Shown here one piece after another: positions 1-6,604 of a stretch of DNA of 20,162 bases. The translations under genes and the position numbers were made by a program. How positions within the stretch are numbered: the stretch's first letter is position 1; every line of letters begins with the position of its first letter. Location of the stretch: positions 1 through 20,162 of the IMG/VR virus record IMGVR_UViG_3300020477_000173; one strand, written 5' to 3'. The DNA comes from a virus. A model generated the notes under the pieces. That model did no database searches, was not told the DNA's origin, and worked only from the letters and a program-made list of their open reading frames with translations.

Positions 1-548
1 CCCATTCCTTTCATCTTTCCAAATCTAGGAAAGTTCAACAGGATTGCAAAGCTACTAAAGAGTTGTAGTCCTTCGGTGAAAGCTGAATAGACTGCTAAAG
101 TCCTGGCAATAGCTTTTTTGTTTCTTCTTGATGGTCTAAAGTTTGACACATAATCATGCTTGTTAGCCATCTCTTCATACTCTGAGAAAGCTTTGTATTC
201 TATTTCAGGCATACCTACAGTATCTAATAAAAGACTATAGGCATGTTGATGGATTGACTCCATGTTGGCAAAGGCTGTCATCATCATCCTAGCTTCAGGT
301 TGTTTGAATATTCTCATATACTTGTCTATATATCCTGATCCTACGTCTACGTCTGACTGTGTGAATAGTCTAAAGATTTGAGTTAGTAAGTTCTTGTCGG
401 AATCTGACAAGTCCTGCCAATCTTTGACATCAGTATGTAGTGGTACAGACTCAGGTAGCCAATGCATTTGGTTTTGTTCTACATACTTATCGAACATCCA
501 AGGATAGTCGAAAGGTTTGTAGTAGTCTCTATTACTTAATAGGCTCAT
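1..548 (-). CDS. nrdB: Ribonucleotide reductase small (R2) subunit, partial
   Basis: This is the N-terminal part (about 182 residues) of class I ribonucleotide reductase beta subunit, which houses the metal/radical centre and works with NrdA to make dNTPs in the cytoplasm. The gene starts at an ATG at 548 and runs off the left edge. Visible family features are the DxxxD-type segment SDVDVGSGYID, the metal-ligand helix MESIHQHAYS (an ExxH ligand pair) and the second ligand helix SAFTEGLQLFSSFA. The sequence is cut just after FPRFGKMKGMG, which in the family precedes the last ligand set. The ATG overlaps the TGA of the upstream Mom-like gene (ATGA), so the two are probably translationally coupled. 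The cofactor type and radical tyrosine cannot be judged with confidence from this fragment. Confidence 0.95.
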   Translation of the reverse strand, partial: MSLLSNRDYYKPFDYPWMFDKYVEQNQMHWLPESVPLHTDVKDWQDLSDSDKNLLTQIFRLFTQSDVDVGSGYIDKYMRIFKQPEARMMMTAFANMESIHQHAYSLLLDTVGMPEIEYKAFSEYEEMANKHDYVSNFRPSRRNKKAIARTLAVYSAFTEGLQLFSSFAILLNFPRFGKMKGM

Positions 549-1120
549 TGTCTTTCTCCACTATACTTACAGAATACTAATTTAGGTTTTAGATTTTTTG
601 TATCCCATATTCGCTTACCACTCCAATTATCAGTACCTTTTCCTTTAGTTCTTTTACACGTAAAGCCTTTCGTTTGTCCAACTAAAGTCCATTTATCTTT
701 TAAATACAACTCTCCTGTTCTAGGAAGTTCAACTAAAGATTCAAAACCTATTACTTCATCTCCGTATTTTTCTTCCCAATCATTTACTACTGTGCTACAA
801 AAAGCTCTTAAAACTTTTGTAGTAAAGTTCCTTGTAGGATATTTATTATTATGTTTTTCTATATGATAAAATATATTATTCACTATTCTTTTTAAATTTT
901 CTAACTTAGTATCTTTTGTTAAATTAAAGAAATCATCTCTACCTGCTAAATGCATAGTTGAAGAACCTCCCACAATATGTCCATAATAAATATCATTATA
1001 GGTTATGGCATAACAAATATTTCTTCCAACAAATCCTTTAGGTTTTGAATAATGTCTATTCATTAAATCAAGTAATGAAGTATCAGTTCTTTTTGTTACT
1101 GATAATAGTAGGCTCATTGT
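540..1120. repeat. 12-base direct repeat flanking the Mom-like gene
   Basis: The 12 bases TAGGCTCATTGT occur exactly at 540-551 and 1109-1120. Each copy contains a start codon: nrdB at 546-548 and the Mom-like gene at 1115-1117. The minus-strand sequence before both starts is also alike (GGAGAAAGACA and GAGGAAAACA). The repeat brackets the Mom-like gene almost exactly. Confidence 0.7.
545..1117 (-). CDS. Mom / DUF4338-like (GNAT-fold) putative DNA-modification protein
   Basis: This protein of about 190 residues has the pattern of the Mom/DUF4338 acyltransferase-like group. It has an early HYSKPKGFVGR segment (His-Tyr-Ser near residues 22-24), a central RDDFF, then the motifs DWEEKYGDEVIGFESLVE, RTGELYLKDKW and VGQTKG near the end. 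The Mu Mom protein converts adenine to a carbamoylmethyl form that blocks restriction; DUF4338 also occurs in Druantia defence proteins. I infer a nucleic-acid-modifying or related acyltransferase role from this pattern and cannot confirm it. I chose the ATG at 1117 because GAGGAAAACA precedes it; an in-frame start at 1144 would add nine residues. It sits in the nrd operon, and its start region repeats that of nrdB, which suggests insertion as a cargo gene. Confidence 0.6.
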   Translation of the reverse strand: MSLLLSVTKRTDTSLLDLMNRHYSKPKGFVGRNICYAITYNDIYYGHIVGGSSTMHLAGRDDFFNLTKDTKLENLKRIVNNIFYHIEKHNNKYPTRNFTTKVLRAFCSTVVNDWEEKYGDEVIGFESLVELPRTGELYLKDKWTLVGQTKGFTCKRTKGKGTDNWSGKRIWDTKNLKPKLVFCKYSGERQ

Positions 1121-1274
1121 TTTCCTCTTTCTTATTATTATCAACAGGCTTATAAAGAGCTTCCCAAATCATGCGTCTTCTTGTATCTTTAATAGCAGAG
1201 ATTAATTCCTCTGATGTATCACAAGTATAAGCTGTTAAATTTTTTCCTTCAAATGTTTTCTTCATTATCTTCAT
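1083..1274 (-). CDS. Small hypothetical phage protein
   Basis: This encodes 63 residues, rich in Lys, Asn and Glu, with no recognised domain. A possible amphipathic stretch (DTSEELISAIKDTRRRMIWE) covers the middle, and the C-terminus is low-complexity (NNKKEENNEP). It overlaps the upstream gene by 26 bases and the Mom-like gene start by 35 bases, so its tail carries the Mom-like gene's ribosome binding site. Two ATGs are possible, 1274 and 1265; neither has a strong Shine-Dalgarno sequence. Operon position and compact overlap support it being real. Confidence 0.6.
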   Translation of the reverse strand: MKIMKKTFEGKNLTAYTCDTSEELISAIKDTRRRMIWEALYKPVDNNKKEENNEPTIISNKKN

Positions 1275-1419
1275 CCACTTGTTTTGAATACTTATCTAAT
1301 AACCATATCCAATGTCTACTAACATACTCTTCATAGGTTAAAGCATTACTATGTAAGGTTTTATTTTCATCACAATGATCCAACCACATACGACTGCAAA
1401 AACTTTTAAAGTTAGCCAT
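1249..1419 (-). CDS. Small hypothetical protein with FCSRMWLDHCDEN motif
   Basis: About 56 residues starting MANFKSFCSRMWLDHCDENK. Short proteins with a WLDxCDEN segment are common hypothetical genes near replication genes in aquatic phages, from memory; their function is unknown. I chose the ATG at 1419 because it overlaps the upstream stop as TAATG, typical of coupled translation; an in-frame ATG at 1440 would add seven residues. The rest is rich in aromatic residues (RHWIWLLDKY) and ends acidic. Confidence 0.65.
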   Translation of the reverse strand: MANFKSFCSRMWLDHCDENKTLHSNALTYEEYVSRHWIWLLDKYSKQVDEDNEENI

Positions 1420-1631
1420 TAAAAACTGTCCAATAAACATTCTAATTTCTCTTGAGCATTTGCTAGTTCTGTCATTAACTTATCCATTGATTCTATTATA
1501 TGTGGATGTTCTGCTACACCTACACTAGATTCAAAATAAACTTCAAGTTCAGCTTTAGCTATTGCTATGTCTGCTTCATACTTTCTTTTCAAAGCATCAA
1601 ACCTGTTTTCTTTTCTTATATCTTCACTCAT
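1419..1631 (-). CDS. Small hypothetical protein, probable coiled coil
   Basis: Seventy residues, predominantly helical by composition. Residues 9-32 and 48-68 show heptad-like spacing of Leu/Ile/Ala among charged residues, with the segment GVAEHPHIIESMDKLM between them. No catalytic motif is visible. The ATG at 1631 overlaps the end of the oxygenase gene by 8 bases and is preceded by AGGAGAAGATA, a good ribosome binding site. Function unknown; a protein-interaction role is only a guess. Confidence 0.7.
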   Translation of the reverse strand: MSEDIRKENRFDALKRKYEADIAIAKAELEVYFESSVGVAEHPHIIESMDKLMTELANAQEKLECLLDSF

Positions 1632-2352
1632 TATCTTCTCCTTGTGATTCTATATCCCATACATTTAAGTTAGCTGCCACAGTTCTACGTTCTCCCTTCC
1701 CAAAGAAAGGATAGACCATGTGTTGCATCCATGAGGGGAACATTAATTGTCTACCTACTATTGGTTGTATTGAAGCTGATTGTGGAGGTCTTAATCTTTT
1801 AGTATTCATTATCTCATTACGACCATAAGTGAAAGCTAAGAAGCCATCACAAGCTCCTGAAGCTCCATATAATGAATATAGTCCTCCATTACTATCTTGA
1901 TTTAATTCCCCTAACTTACCAATCTGTTCAGGTACTTTAGTCCATGTCGTAGTAGATATACCTGTAAGTGTCTTAGTACCATGATCGTGTATAGGATTGT
2001 AGTCTCCTTCATAACTGTGAACTGACCATAGTTCATCTATGTCTACTGCTTTATTATTAAAGTAATGTCCTGTTGTATTACCAAAAGCTTGTAGATAAGT
2101 CACTCCCATAGCCGTAATAAATTTATAATAGTCTTCTAATAATTTATCGTTGTGATCCATTAATAACTGTTCACCTTGATGTATCTGTCCAACCAGAGTA
2201 TGAGCAAGAGATTTTCTATCTTTATCTTTTTTATAAACGTCTAGATAAGTATTCAAATCTTTTATTATCTTCTTTGGTAACTGACATTCCAGCATAATAA
2301 CAGCAGGTAAATTATGTATCTGTAAGTTTACTTCTTCTGCATTAAATTCCAT
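1624..2352 (-). CDS. 2OG-Fe(II) oxygenase family protein
   Basis: This 242-residue protein has the layout of the putative 2OG-Fe(II) oxygenase group seen in many aquatic phages. It has a helical N-terminal half, then a double-stranded beta-helix core. Likely iron ligands are His122 and/or His124 in NPIHDHG and His211 in FPSWMQHMVYP, followed by Arg222/Arg223 in GERRTVAANLNVW, the place where the 2-oxoglutarate carboxylate binds in the family. The motif GRQLMFPSW is also typical. Such enzymes hydroxylate proteins, small molecules or nucleobases; the substrate here is unknown. It sits between the NrdA-tail protein and the Mom-like gene. The ribosome binding site GAGGGTTA is formed by the last codons and stop of the upstream gene. 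Confidence 0.85.
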   Translation of the reverse strand: MEFNAEEVNLQIHNLPAVIMLECQLPKKIIKDLNTYLDVYKKDKDRKSLAHTLVGQIHQGEQLLMDHNDKLLEDYYKFITAMGVTYLQAFGNTTGHYFNNKAVDIDELWSVHSYEGDYNPIHDHGTKTLTGISTTTWTKVPEQIGKLGELNQDSNGGLYSLYGASGACDGFLAFTYGRNEIMNTKRLRPPQSASIQPIVGRQLMFPSWMQHMVYPFFGKGERRTVAANLNVWDIESQGEDNE

Positions 2353-2353
2353 A

Positions 2354-2584
2354 TTAACCCTCGCAACTTAAACAGTCAACTTCAGCTTCTGTTTCAATCC
2401 AAACTCTTGCTCCACAATTTAAAGGTTTTGTTGGGCTATAAATAACTTTACTCACTCCTTTAATATGAACTTCATGTGCATAAGTATTAGATTTATAAGT
2501 TTTAACTGTTATAACAGGCTTGTTAGTATTATGTTTTTGATTATATTTAATATTATGTTGATTGATATGAATCCTTTTTTTCAT
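2354..2584 (-). CDS. Small protein sharing the NrdA C-terminal CLSCEG tail
   Basis: Seventy-six residues, with a basic Asn/His/Lys-rich N-terminus, a beta-like middle (VITVKTYKSNTYAHEVHIKG, then KVIYSPTKPLNCGARVWIE) and a C-terminus EVDCLSCEG. The last six residues match the end of NrdA encoded just upstream (DVECLSCEG). In class I RNRs the C-terminal Cys pair shuttles electrons from thioredoxin or glutaredoxin to the active site, so the copy here could be a redox handle. The final EG-stop also forms the ribosome binding site of the next gene, but that does not explain the CLSC part. Its own ATG follows GGTTAGGAAAA at the end of nrdA. Function unknown. Confidence 0.75.
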   Translation of the reverse strand: MKKRIHINQHNIKYNQKHNTNKPVITVKTYKSNTYAHEVHIKGVSKVIYSPTKPLNCGARVWIETEAEVDCLSCEG

Positions 2585-2589
2585 TTTTC

Positions 2590-4503
2590 CTAACCTTCAC
2601 AACTTAAACATTCAACATCTTCTAACTTAACTCTAGGTATTTTTATATTTACATTCTCAACAGACCTAGCTGCATCTGATCTAAAGTAATACAAAGATTT
2701 AAGTTTATTCATACCATACCAATGCACATCATTAACATACTGTAGGTAATCATCATGCACTTCCTGTGACTCAGTAGCTTTAGGCATGGTAAAGAATAGA
2801 TTAACACTTTGACTCTGACAAATATATTCCTGTCGCATGTGTGCATGTTCCACTAGATATATCTGATTGATCTCTGGAGCTGTCTTAAATATCTCCTTCT
2901 CAGCATCATCCAGGATATCTAGGTGTTGCACAGAGCCATTAGTTCCTGCTATGTCTTTCCATACCTTTTCTCTGTCTTCTACATTAAGTCCTTTCTTTTT
3001 CAGTAACCTTTCTAAGTATTTATTTTTGACTTGGTAACTTCCTGAGAGCGTCTTGTGCGTAAACGAGTTAGCACGATATGGTTCAATGCTAGGGGAAGTT
3101 CCACCACATATAATACTACTACTAGCATTAGGAGCAATAGCCAAGAGATGAGAATTACGAATATTGCTACCATGTACATCAGGAGCTTCGCCACGTTCTT
3201 CGCCAAGTCTCTTGGTAGCTTTCGTAGCTTTTCCTTTGATGTGTGAAAACATGATATGGTTGTTACTAGTTGACTGTAAGCTTTGGAACGGAAGACCTTT
3301 ACTTTGGAGATAAGCGTGGAAGCCCATCGCTCCAAGACCCAACGACCTTTCTCTATAAGCCGAATAAGCTGCTTTAACCAATCCTTCTTTTTCTTCTTTA
3401 ACATAATTTTTAAACCTCTTAAAGTTTGCATTGTATCCACCTAGTCCTGAAGTATCTACAATCGCTTCGATAAAATGTTCTAATACATTATCGAGCATAG
3501 TTATTAAATCATCTATGAATTGTTCATCCTTCTTCCATTTGTCAAAGTGTTCTAAGTTGACACTAGATAAACAACACACAGCAGTTCGTTCTTCATTAGT
3601 AGGTAATACTATTTCAGAACATAAATTACTTTGATTAATCTTTAAACCTAAGTCCTTTTGCCCTTGTGGTAAGAACTCATTACACCTATCAATATTAATC
3701 ATATATGGTTCTCCTGTCTCAGCTCTTGCATTTAACAGTTGCCACCATAAATCTCTAGCACTAATAGTCTTAACAGCTTCATTAGATTTAGGATCAATCA
3801 ATCTCCATTCTTCATCATTCCTTACAGCAGTTAAAAACTCATCAGTTATATTAACTGCATTGTGAATGTTTAAACACTTCCTATTTATATCCCCACCAGA
3901 TTCCCTACGCATGTTGATAAATTCTTCAATCTCTGGATGGTCTATATCTGAGTAAGCTGCATAGCTTCCTCTCCTGGTTATGCCTTGATTGAAGGCTAAC
4001 ATCTCTGAGTCTACGACATGCATGAATGGTATTGATCCAGTAGAACGACTACCGTGCCTAGTTGCAACACCATTACTGCGAACATCTCCCCAATAGCCAC
4101 CGATACCTCCACCTGAACTAGCCAACCATATGTTCTCATCATAATGATCAGATAAACCCCTCCTACTATCAGGTACGTAATTGAGAAAGCAGCTAATAGG
4201 TAAGCCACGAGTGGTTCCTCCGTTAGAAAGTATAGGGGTACTAAACATAAACCAACAATCAGATGAATACTGATAGAGTCTTTGGGCAAGATCAAAATCA
4301 GTTTCTCCTTTATACGTTGCTCCAAATACACTAGCCCTTGCAAAAGCTTCTTGAGCATGACTTTCTTTCTCCCATAAATATCTATCTTTTAATGTATCTA
4401 AACTAAACTTATCTAGCTTAGACTCCTTATCATAATCTATTTCAATACCTAAGTATGATTTGTTTCCTACTTTATCCGTTATCATAATGACCTTCCTTGT
4501 CAT
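2590..4503 (-). CDS. nrdA: Ribonucleotide reductase large (R1) subunit
   Basis: Class I RNR alpha subunit, 637 residues, reducing ribonucleoside diphosphates with NrdB. Visible active-site residues are Cys105 (GLPISCFLNY), the NxCxE set Asn293, Cys295 and Glu297 in SNLCSEI, Cys310 in AVCCLSSVNL, the radical-transfer Tyr605-Tyr606 in LKSLYYFRSD, and the C-terminal redox pair Cys632/Cys635 in CLSCEG. It is shorter than the E. coli enzyme at the N-terminus and shows no ATP-cone, so dATP feedback inhibition is probably absent. The ATG at 4503 overlaps the upstream gene by 32 bases with GAGGAG ten bases away. An in-frame ATG at 4485 (MITDKVG) has AAGGAAGG close upstream and may be the true start. 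Confidence 0.97.
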   Translation of the reverse strand: MTRKVIMITDKVGNKSYLGIEIDYDKESKLDKFSLDTLKDRYLWEKESHAQEAFARASVFGATYKGETDFDLAQRLYQYSSDCWFMFSTPILSNGGTTRGLPISCFLNYVPDSRRGLSDHYDENIWLASSGGGIGGYWGDVRSNGVATRHGSRSTGSIPFMHVVDSEMLAFNQGITRRGSYAAYSDIDHPEIEEFINMRRESGGDINRKCLNIHNAVNITDEFLTAVRNDEEWRLIDPKSNEAVKTISARDLWWQLLNARAETGEPYMINIDRCNEFLPQGQKDLGLKINQSNLCSEIVLPTNEERTAVCCLSSVNLEHFDKWKKDEQFIDDLITMLDNVLEHFIEAIVDTSGLGGYNANFKRFKNYVKEEKEGLVKAAYSAYRERSLGLGAMGFHAYLQSKGLPFQSLQSTSNNHIMFSHIKGKATKATKRLGEERGEAPDVHGSNIRNSHLLAIAPNASSSIICGGTSPSIEPYRANSFTHKTLSGSYQVKNKYLERLLKKKGLNVEDREKVWKDIAGTNGSVQHLDILDDAEKEIFKTAPEINQIYLVEHAHMRQEYICQSQSVNLFFTMPKATESQEVHDDYLQYVNDVHWYGMNKLKSLYYFRSDAARSVENVNIKIPRVKLEDVECLSCEG

Positions 4504-5236: not shown

Positions 5237-6098
5237 TAGTTAGTTCCTTTACTTTAGGTTCTTTAACAACAGTTGTAAAATAAGCTAGTCCTTTAGCATA
5301 TTGAAATATCCTTAGACCTTTACCATCATTAGTATCTTGGTGGCATTCGTACTTATGTCTACAGTAAAAACATTCACGAGGTAGTTTCATATTGCCTGAT
5401 ACACCATCAGGTACAGGATCGTAGCATTTTTGAGGTGGTTGTGAAGACTTTAAAGCTTTCTTCACTCTACTTATTTTAGTCCGTATATTAGGTTTGTCAA
5501 GTTCTTCAGGTCTAAAGAGGGCAAGTTCTCCTGTTTCTTTATTAAGAGCAAGAAAACCTCCTCCCTCTGTACCCATAGCTTCTTCATACCCTGCAAGTTG
5601 TGACATATAACCAAAAGTATCTTGCTCTGCTAAAGTACCATCTCTAAATTTCTTAAAGGCAAAGCCTGAAGCAGTCTTAACATCAACCACTTCTCCATCA
5701 ATCGTACAATCCATGTGGCCTTTAACACCACTAACGGATACTTTCTTTTGTTCGTCATCTACTTTATGTCCTGCTAATCTAACCAGGAATAAGACAACCT
5801 CTTCTAAGATGTGACCATAGAGAAACTTAATAAAGGTTTGAGGAGCAAGTGGTGTATCACTATCGTCAGAGTTTAAGTCATACCACAACTGCCTCTCAGG
5901 TCTACCTATATTTGACATTCTTAAAGTTTCAGTACTGTTCCTTGGTTCAGGGTGGGCCCAATTCTTTAATGCAGTCTTAATAGATTCGCCAAGTTCATCT
6001 ATATCTTTCTCAGATACATCTAATTGTTTGCCTTCTCCTAGTACAGAGAGCTTACTATAAATGTCGTCTACTAAAGTATCTAGTTTTTTCTTTTTCAT
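5181..6098 (-). CDS. PD-(D/E)XK exonuclease, RecB/Cas4-like with Cys cluster
   Basis: A 305-residue nuclease of the RecB/Cas4-like group. Motifs in order are GHILEE (His96, Glu99), the catalytic GHMD (Asp130), VVDVKTAS (Asp139, Lys141), and a QxxxY motif in SQLAGYEEAM (Gln167, Tyr171). After these comes a Cys cluster: Cys225, then Cys243-x2-Cys246-x5-Cys252 in ECFYCRHKYEC, the spacing of the iron-sulfur clusters in Cas4 and AddB. The role is probably degradation of host DNA or resection of ends during recombination and packaging, replacing T7 gp6. The ATG at 6098 overlaps the stop of the endonuclease gene (ATGA) with GAGGCATT upstream. The C-terminus is Lys-rich. Confidence 0.9.
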   Translation of the reverse strand: MKKKKLDTLVDDIYSKLSVLGEGKQLDVSEKDIDELGESIKTALKNWAHPEPRNSTETLRMSNIGRPERQLWYDLNSDDSDTPLAPQTFIKFLYGHILEEVVLFLVRLAGHKVDDEQKKVSVSGVKGHMDCTIDGEVVDVKTASGFAFKKFRDGTLAEQDTFGYMSQLAGYEEAMGTEGGGFLALNKETGELALFRPEELDKPNIRTKISRVKKALKSSQPPQKCYDPVPDGVSGNMKLPRECFYCRHKYECHQDTNDGKGLRIFQYAKGLAYFTTVVKEPKVKELTNEWKKGKKNKKTRKPTGA

Positions 6099-6604
6099 AA
6101 TGCCTCTATAGTTTTCTTGGCTTCCTTTACAGATGTTTTAAACCATTCTCCATTATAGGTATCTGTAATTTTTTTAAGTTCTTTATGTGCTGACTGTTCT
6201 GCAGTTTTTCTATCTTCAAAATGTTTAAGATAACACAACTTATAATCTCTAAAAGGACTACTTGTTTGATATTGTTTACATCTATCTTCAGCATCGATTG
6301 CCATACCAACCTTTACCCAATCTTTCCAACAGGGATTATTAATAATGTAAACATATCCTTCTGTTGTGTTAGCATAACCTTCTAAAGAAGCAAAGGCTGC
6401 ACTCTCAAAGGTTTTGTACTTACCAGGCTTATGAAGTGGGTGAGAGAATGGGATATATTTCCCATTAACATACATTCTGCTATTATTATGCTCTTTTTTA
6501 CAAGAATTACACCAATACTTTTTCTGACGAGCTTGGCTAGATAGCCAATTATCTCCCTCTTTTAATTCAATATCACAATACGTACAGTGTCTAATGTGTC
6601 TCAC
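6095..6604 (-). CDS. GIY-YIG (T5orf172-like) endonuclease with zinc finger
   Basis: This 169-residue protein has an N-terminal putative zinc finger (Cys7-x2-Cys10 and Cys32-x2-Cys35) and a C-terminal GIY-YIG-like nuclease domain: GYVYIINNP (83-91), WVKVGMAIDAEDRCKQYQ (96-113), and the C-terminal GEWFKT (152-157). This layout matches T5orf172/Mug113-type GIY-YIG domains. It lies between the exonuclease and DNA polymerase genes, a typical place for a free-standing homing endonuclease, although a recombination or repair nuclease is also possible. The start is a GTG at 6604 with AGGAGATAACTGGA upstream; it overlaps the end of the polymerase gene by 14 bases. Confidence 0.85.
   Translation of the reverse strand: MRHIRHCTYCDIELKEGDNWLSSQARQKKYWCNSCKKEHNNSRMYVNGKYIPFSHPLHKPGKYKTFESAAFASLEGYANTTEGYVYIINNPCWKDWVKVGMAIDAEDRCKQYQTSSPFRDYKLCYLKHFEDRKTAEQSAHKELKKITDTYNGEWFKTSVKEAKKTIEAL

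What the first reader, a model, noticed from the sequence alone, without database searches (positions are those of the whole stretch)
545..2352. Mom/DUF4338-like protein and 2OG-Fe(II) oxygenase inside an RNR operon: possible DNA-modification set
A Mom-like acyltransferase and a 2OG oxygenase are separated only by three tiny genes and flanked by nrdA and nrdB. Mom modifies adenine; 2OG oxygenases can oxidise nucleobases. Together with small unknown genes this could be a new nucleobase hypermodification route protecting phage DNA from restriction.
Basis: partly seen in the sequence, partly recalled or inferred. Interest (0 to 1): 0.6.

Follow-up and report, generated by a model that had tools for sequence, protein, structure and literature searches.

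The report
Mobile DruA-like acyltransferase in phage RNR operon
A small Mom/DruA-type acyltransferase gene, which moves between unrelated viruses and lands beside DNA-replication genes, has been inserted between the two ribonucleotide reductase genes of a virus related to Pelagibacter phages; it sits near an older, unrelated oxygenase gene, and the two show no sign of being a DNA-modification team.

Summary
Between nrdA and nrdB of a Pelagibacter-phage-like fragment lie a DUF4338 (now Pfam DruA) protein of 190 aa and a PF13759 2OG-Fe(II) oxygenase, separated by three small ORFs. The 190-aa protein is a DUF4338/DruA relative by sequence (27% identity to a bacterial DUF4338 protein, E 2e-14; hhalign 97%) and a GNAT acyltransferase by predicted fold, best solved match phage Mu Mom (Z 14.4). 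It is not detectably Mom by sequence.

The 'set' interpretation fails. The gene was found in 69 viral loci in about 44 unrelated gene neighbourhoods, next to DNA polymerase A, DNA methyltransferases, helicase or RNR genes; none has the oxygenase beside it. None of 50 records with the oxygenase has the gene. Close relatives of the window have nothing, an Endonuclease VII gene or other small ORFs in the same slot. The oxygenase is older there, occurs in two further contexts without modification genes, and its model resembles protein prolyl hydroxylases.

Most likely: a mobile, stand-alone DruA-type acyltransferase that modifies DNA (inferred, untested), inserted at a homing-type site before nrdB and unrelated in function to the oxygenase. 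New variant of a known kind; moderate interest.

The parts
545..1117 (-). DUF4338/DruA-type GNAT acyltransferase, 190 aa (the 'Mom-like' gene)
   Evidence: PF14236 E 2.9e-6; BLASTP to bacterial DUF4338 protein E 2e-14; hhalign 97.3%; model pLDDT 86, best solved fold match Mu Mom 8bv8 Z 14.4 over 157 residues; 69 viral loci
1083..1274 (-). 63-aa ORF found only in the window; overlaps the start of the 190-aa gene and probably came with, or arose at, the insertion
   Evidence: no relative in L001-L088
1249..1440 (-). 63-aa ORF, conserved part of the ancestral operon
   Evidence: present before nrdB in most RNR-operon relatives
1419..1631 (-). 70-aa ORF, phrog_1811, conserved part of the ancestral operon
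1624..2352 (-). 2OG-Fe(II) oxygenase, PF13759; putative metal/2OG residues H122, H124, H211, R222 invariant in 35 relatives
   Evidence: model closest to 3bvc/2rg4 (Z 17) then P4H (Z 15.9)
2354..2584 (-). 76-aa phrog_8676 protein whose last residues copy the NrdA redox tail (CLSCEG)
2590..4503 (-). nrdA, class I ribonucleotide reductase large subunit
   Evidence: PF02867 E 1e-98
3..548 (-). nrdB, small subunit, 3' end cut by the window
   Evidence: PF00268 E 4e-44
1106..1120 (-). start of the 190-aa gene: shares acaATGAGCCTA (12 nt) with the nrdB start, so its first residues MSLL look taken from nrdB
   Evidence: relatives start MIEL..TKRTD

Best explanation
The 190-aa gene is a stand-alone DUF4338/DruA-type GNAT acyltransferase of phages that spreads horizontally and is inserted next to conserved replication and nucleotide genes, here directly in front of nrdB at a site used by mobile endonuclease genes in relatives. 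It most likely transfers an acyl group to a nucleobase of DNA, as Mom does, protecting or marking the phage DNA. The 2OG oxygenase is an older, separate passenger of the same operon, more like a protein hydroxylase, and does not act with it. Shown: family, fold (predicted), mobility between contexts, purifying selection, lack of linkage with the oxygenase. Inferred: DNA as substrate, acylation as reaction, protection as benefit.
For: Sequence kinship to DUF4338; GNAT model whose top solved match is Mu Mom, Z 14.4 against 13.0 for the next GNATs; 69 loci in about 44 independent neighbourhoods; Pfam scan of the flanking proteins: 7 DNA polymerase A, 3 DnaB, 5 DNA methyltransferases, RNR; GC lower than the surrounding locus in 13 of 14 loci and lowest GC3 of the operon genes in the window; tree in which polA-adjacent copies lie on several separate branches; slot before nrdB empty, Endonuclease VII or other ORFs in relatives; T4 mobE is a free-standing homing endonuclease between nrdA and nrdB (PMC2988022); a bacterial DUF4338 domain is fused to an ISAs1-type transposase; phage copies lie beside a resolvase (L118), TnpB (L161) and a NUMOD3 GIY-YIG gene (L133).
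Against: No experiment known to me shows that any DUF4338 protein acts on DNA. The phage family is not similar to Mom above shuffled sequence (hhalign E 0.074), and Z 14.4 is only 1.4 above other GNATs. DNA-gene neighbours could reflect insertion hotspots, not function. The gene itself has no nuclease domain, so how it moves is unknown.
Confidence: 0.6

Rival explanations
1. One reading: acyltransferase and oxygenase form one nucleobase hypermodification route, the oxygenase activating a base that the acyltransferase then decorates.
For: Both genes lie in one operon within 1.8 kb; Mom-type enzymes modify DNA elsewhere (PMC7824862), and some 2OG enzymes oxidise nucleobases (general knowledge).
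Against: No oxygenase in the flanks of 68 loci of the acyltransferase; 0 of 50 oxygenase records have the acyltransferase (positive control); only 3 of 50 acyltransferase records hold a remote 2OG protein, over 5 kb away. The oxygenase has two other contexts, at the terminase genes and behind a tail protein.
Confidence: 0.04
2. The 190-aa protein is an acetyltransferase for a protein (for example host RNA polymerase or a replication protein), not for DNA.
For: The GNAT fold is shared with many protein and small-molecule acetyltransferases; phage GNATs that acetylate RNA polymerase are known (PMC7824862).
Against: Top fold match is Mom; sequence kin are DUF4338/DruA proteins tied to transposases and anti-phage defence; repeated DNA methyltransferase neighbours.
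Confidence: 0.25
3. The gene is a purely selfish insertion-site passenger whose activity (for example blocking homing endonuclease cutting or guiding insertion) serves only its own spread.
For: Many neighbourhoods, homing-type sites, broken copies (L122, L163), mobile-element neighbours.
Against: Purifying selection fits either view; no nuclease domain, so no known way to drive its own insertion.
Confidence: 0.11

Closest known systems
DruA / DUF4338 (PF14236), including Druantia type I DruA
   Same: Same conserved domain from the HY motif to Y....W...G.T.G; 27% identity over 158 aa to a bacterial member
   Different: Much shorter stand-alone protein (190 aa against a 297-position model); no other Druantia genes, no relevant PADLOC match
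Mom of phage Mu (PF25680, PDB 8bv8)
   Same: Predicted GNAT fold, best solved match; same order of HYS, Nxx[ST] and Y...G motifs (by eye)
   Different: No significant sequence similarity
DruA-like proteins of six Synechococcus phages (Phold paper, PMC12774648)
   Same: Phage-encoded DruA-like fold
   Different: Reported there at 12.7-17.1% identity to DruA; the named-phage collection gave no tblastn match to the present family
Free-standing homing endonuclease mobE of T-even phages (PMC2988022)
   Same: Occupies the nrdA/nrdB gap as a promoter-less cassette of the operon
   Different: mobE is an HNH nuclease; here a GNAT protein without nuclease domain
PF13759 / phrog_81 2OG-Fe(II) oxygenases of marine phages
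   Same: Domain, invariant putative metal and 2OG residues
   Different: Located inside the RNR operon; function unknown in all contexts

Membership tests
DUF4338/DruA domain (PF14236) | Pfam score above the gathering cut-off of 27 | tested here: met
   27.1 bits window, 29.3 bits L001; other members fall below it (L142 22.5, several none)
DUF4338/DruA domain (PF14236) | alignable over the domain to a bona fide member | tested here: met
   L249, 167 bits to PF14236: BLASTP E 2e-14, hhalign 97.3%, HMM 54 bits
Druantia defence system | druB-druE partner genes | tested here: not met
   no such ORFs in the window; PADLOC gave only a weak chance match to Cas9; the fragment is incomplete
Mom (PF25680) | Pfam match or sequence similarity above chance | tested here: not met
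   no PF25680 match at E<=1; not above shuffles; hhalign E 0.074
Mom (PF25680) | GNAT fold with Mom as nearest solved structure | tested here: met
   8bv8 Z 14.4, rmsd 2.9, 157 aligned; other GNATs up to 13.0
Mom (PF25680) | residue equivalent to Mom S124 (mutant S124A is named inactive in the PDB title) | tested here: inconclusive
   motif-level match Nxx[ST] (T98 in the window; S/T in nearly all members, Q in L120); no residue-level structural alignment available
Mom (PF25680) | adenine modification in DNA | not testable with these tools
   needs LC-MS or nanopore
PF13759 2OG oxygenase | Pfam score above cut-off and invariant metal/2OG residues | tested here: met
   48.9 bits vs 27; invariant H122, H124, H211, R222
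TET/JBP nucleobase oxygenases | Pfam match to a TET/JBP family | tested here: not met
   only PF13759 and PF13640 listed at E<=1
Free-standing homing endonuclease | nuclease domain (GIY-YIG, HNH, LAGLIDADG, Endonuclease VII) | tested here: not met
   no such Pfam match and a whole-length GNAT model

The most novel reading that the evidence does not exclude
Phages carry a class of mobile genes with no nuclease that spread like homing endonucleases: a DruA-type acyltransferase that marks DNA at or near conserved polA/nrd sites, blocking homing or restriction nucleases and so capturing these insertion sites; Druantia DruA and transposase-fused DUF4338 would be the same DNA-modifying chemistry put to defence and transposition.
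Probability: 0.1. Interest if true: 0.85.

Novelty: new variant of a known kind. Interest (0 to 1): 0.42.

Why it matters
DruA of Druantia type I has, to my knowledge, no shown activity. A small stand-alone viral relative with a Mom-like predicted fold, found beside polymerases, methyltransferases and transposases, gives a simple protein with which to test whether DUF4338 is a DNA acyltransferase. The case also shows that what looks like a phage modification operon can be an accident of gene insertion at a homing-type site.

Tried and rejected
1) Joint modification set: rejected on co-occurrence. 2) Mom membership by sequence: hhalign E 0.074 and HMM scores no better than shuffles, so only fold-level likeness is claimed. 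3) Relatives in cellular genomes: two genome-contig scans found none; these scans use short peptide patterns and find close relatives only, so bacterial copies are not excluded. 4) Named phage collection: no tblastn match. 5) PDB sequence search with the family profile: only chance matches. 6) Promoter scan of the operon: counts equal to shuffles, so no statement on transcription. 8) Counting caveat: L001-L005 reappear as L092-L096; contigs were counted once. 9) The fold comparison lists no TET/JBP structure for the oxygenase, which by itself shows nothing.

Full report
WHAT IS THERE. The finding is real. On the minus strand the window reads nrdA, a 76-aa ORF, a 242-aa 2OG-Fe(II) oxygenase, ORFs of 70, 63 and 63 aa, a 190-aa protein and nrdB. 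The oxygenase matches PF13759 (E 9e-13) and phrog_81; the 190-aa protein matches PF14236, DruA, which was called DUF4338 (E 2.9e-6, just at the cut-off). The nearest named relatives of the surrounding genes are in Pelagibacter phages (NrdA 59%, DNA polymerase 51%).

WHAT THE 190-AA PROTEIN IS. Named phages gave no match, but IMG/VR gave 8, then 33, then 69 loci as the profile widened. Conserved residues are HY.KPKGFVGR, NN.F, RNF[T], DW..KY, E.L.E.PR and Y....W...T.G. A bacterial DUF4338 protein on a Thiodictyon plasmid (L249) aligns over 158 residues (27%, E 2e-14; hhalign 97.3%; profile 54 bits), so kinship is firm. The AlphaFold model (pLDDT 86) is a GNAT; the best solved match after realignment is phage Mu Mom, 8bv8, Z 14.4 over 157 residues, the next GNATs reaching 13.0. 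By sequence it is not Mom: scores against eight Mom proteins are no better than against shuffled ones. So it has a Mom-like scaffold but is filed under DUF4338/DruA.

HOW IT TRAVELS. The flanking genes of the loci fall into about 44 unrelated neighbourhoods. Among 70 flanking proteins, 7 are DNA polymerase A, 3 DnaB helicases, 5 DNA methyltransferases (N6/N4, Dam, D12, C5), and others RNR and terminase. Copies beside polA lie on several separate branches of the tree. One copy lies before class II RNR (L098), one before a MerR-type resolvase (L118), one by TnpB (L161), one by a NUMOD3 GIY-YIG gene (L133), and a bacterial DUF4338 is fused to an ISAs1-type transposase. The gene has lower GC than its locus in 13 of 14 loci tested and is under purifying selection; two copies are broken (L122, L163). 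In close relatives of the window the slot before nrdB is empty (L009, L016), or holds Endonuclease VII genes (L013, L020, L027) or other ORFs (L010, L012, L025). T4 mobE, a homing endonuclease, occupies the same nrdA/nrdB gap (PMC2988022). The isolate HTVC115P has nrdA and nrdB adjacent with no insert. The gene's start shares 12 nt with the nrdB start and its first residues MSLL are nrdB's, not the family's, which fits insertion at the nrdB start; this last point is suggestive only.

THE OXYGENASE. It is conserved between nrdA and nrdB in the window's lineage without the 190-aa gene. Relatives of 57-76% identity sit between small- and large-terminase genes, or behind a tail fibre/spike protein. 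Putative metal and 2OG residues are invariant. Its model (pLDDT 76) matches two uncharacterised structures (3bvc, 2rg4; Z 17), then Pseudomonas P4H, solved with EF-Tu (Z 15.9 and 15.4), PHD2 (about 15) and AlkB (14.0). Fold does not prove substrate, but nothing points to a nucleobase.

LINKAGE. A profile of the oxygenase found nothing in 574 kb of flanks of 68 loci. At the level of whole records, 3 of 50 with the acyltransferase hold a remote 2OG protein, more than 5 kb away, and 0 of 50 with the oxygenase hold the acyltransferase (positive control 6 of 6). Records are fragments, so absence is not proof for each virus, but the pair is not inherited as a set.

MECHANISM. Best reading: a mobile acyltransferase that modifies DNA. 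DNA as substrate rests on the Mom-like fold, the kinship with DruA and transposase-linked proteins, and the methyltransferase and polymerase neighbours; it is inference. A protein substrate remains the main rival. How the gene is inserted is open: it has no nuclease domain, so it may ride on recombination at sites cut by other phages' homing endonucleases.

NOVELTY. Mom-type enzymes and DruA-like phage proteins are known (PMC7824862; PMC12774648). What appears new is a compact stand-alone DUF4338 family of phages, missed by PHROGs, with homing-like distribution.

Noticed in passing
window 2354-2584 (-); L025, L170, L171: The 76-aa phrog_8676 protein behind nrdA ends in DCLSCEG, the redox tail of NrdA (ECLSCEG). 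Only 3 of 80 relatives kept by the scan have it, plus the window; L171 carries it with no nrdA nearby. In L025 the last 24 nt equal those of its nrdA. It looks like a captured tail, perhaps able to act in trans on RNR.
   Followed up: partly
window 6095-6604 (-): A T5orf172/MUG113 (GIY-YIG-type) gene directly follows polA, the same place where the acyltransferase sits in L092-L096.
   Followed up: no
L122:3750-4878 (-): A tryptophan halogenase gene, split in two ORFs, lies between a C5 methyltransferase and a broken copy of the acyltransferase.
   Followed up: no
L013:6475-7014, L020:5611-6617, L027:8073-8594: Endonuclease VII genes with long basic repeat-rich N-termini (KEQIAAYKKEYREKNKE) occupy the slot before nrdB; L020 has two in tandem.
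   Followed up: no
window 1083-1274 (-): 63-aa ORF with no relative in L001-L088, overlapping both neighbours; may be a by-product of the insertion.
   Followed up: no
L250:1371-2705 (-): DUF4338 domain fused to DDE_Tnp_1_assoc and DDE_Tnp_1 in an ISAs1-type transposase.
   Followed up: partly
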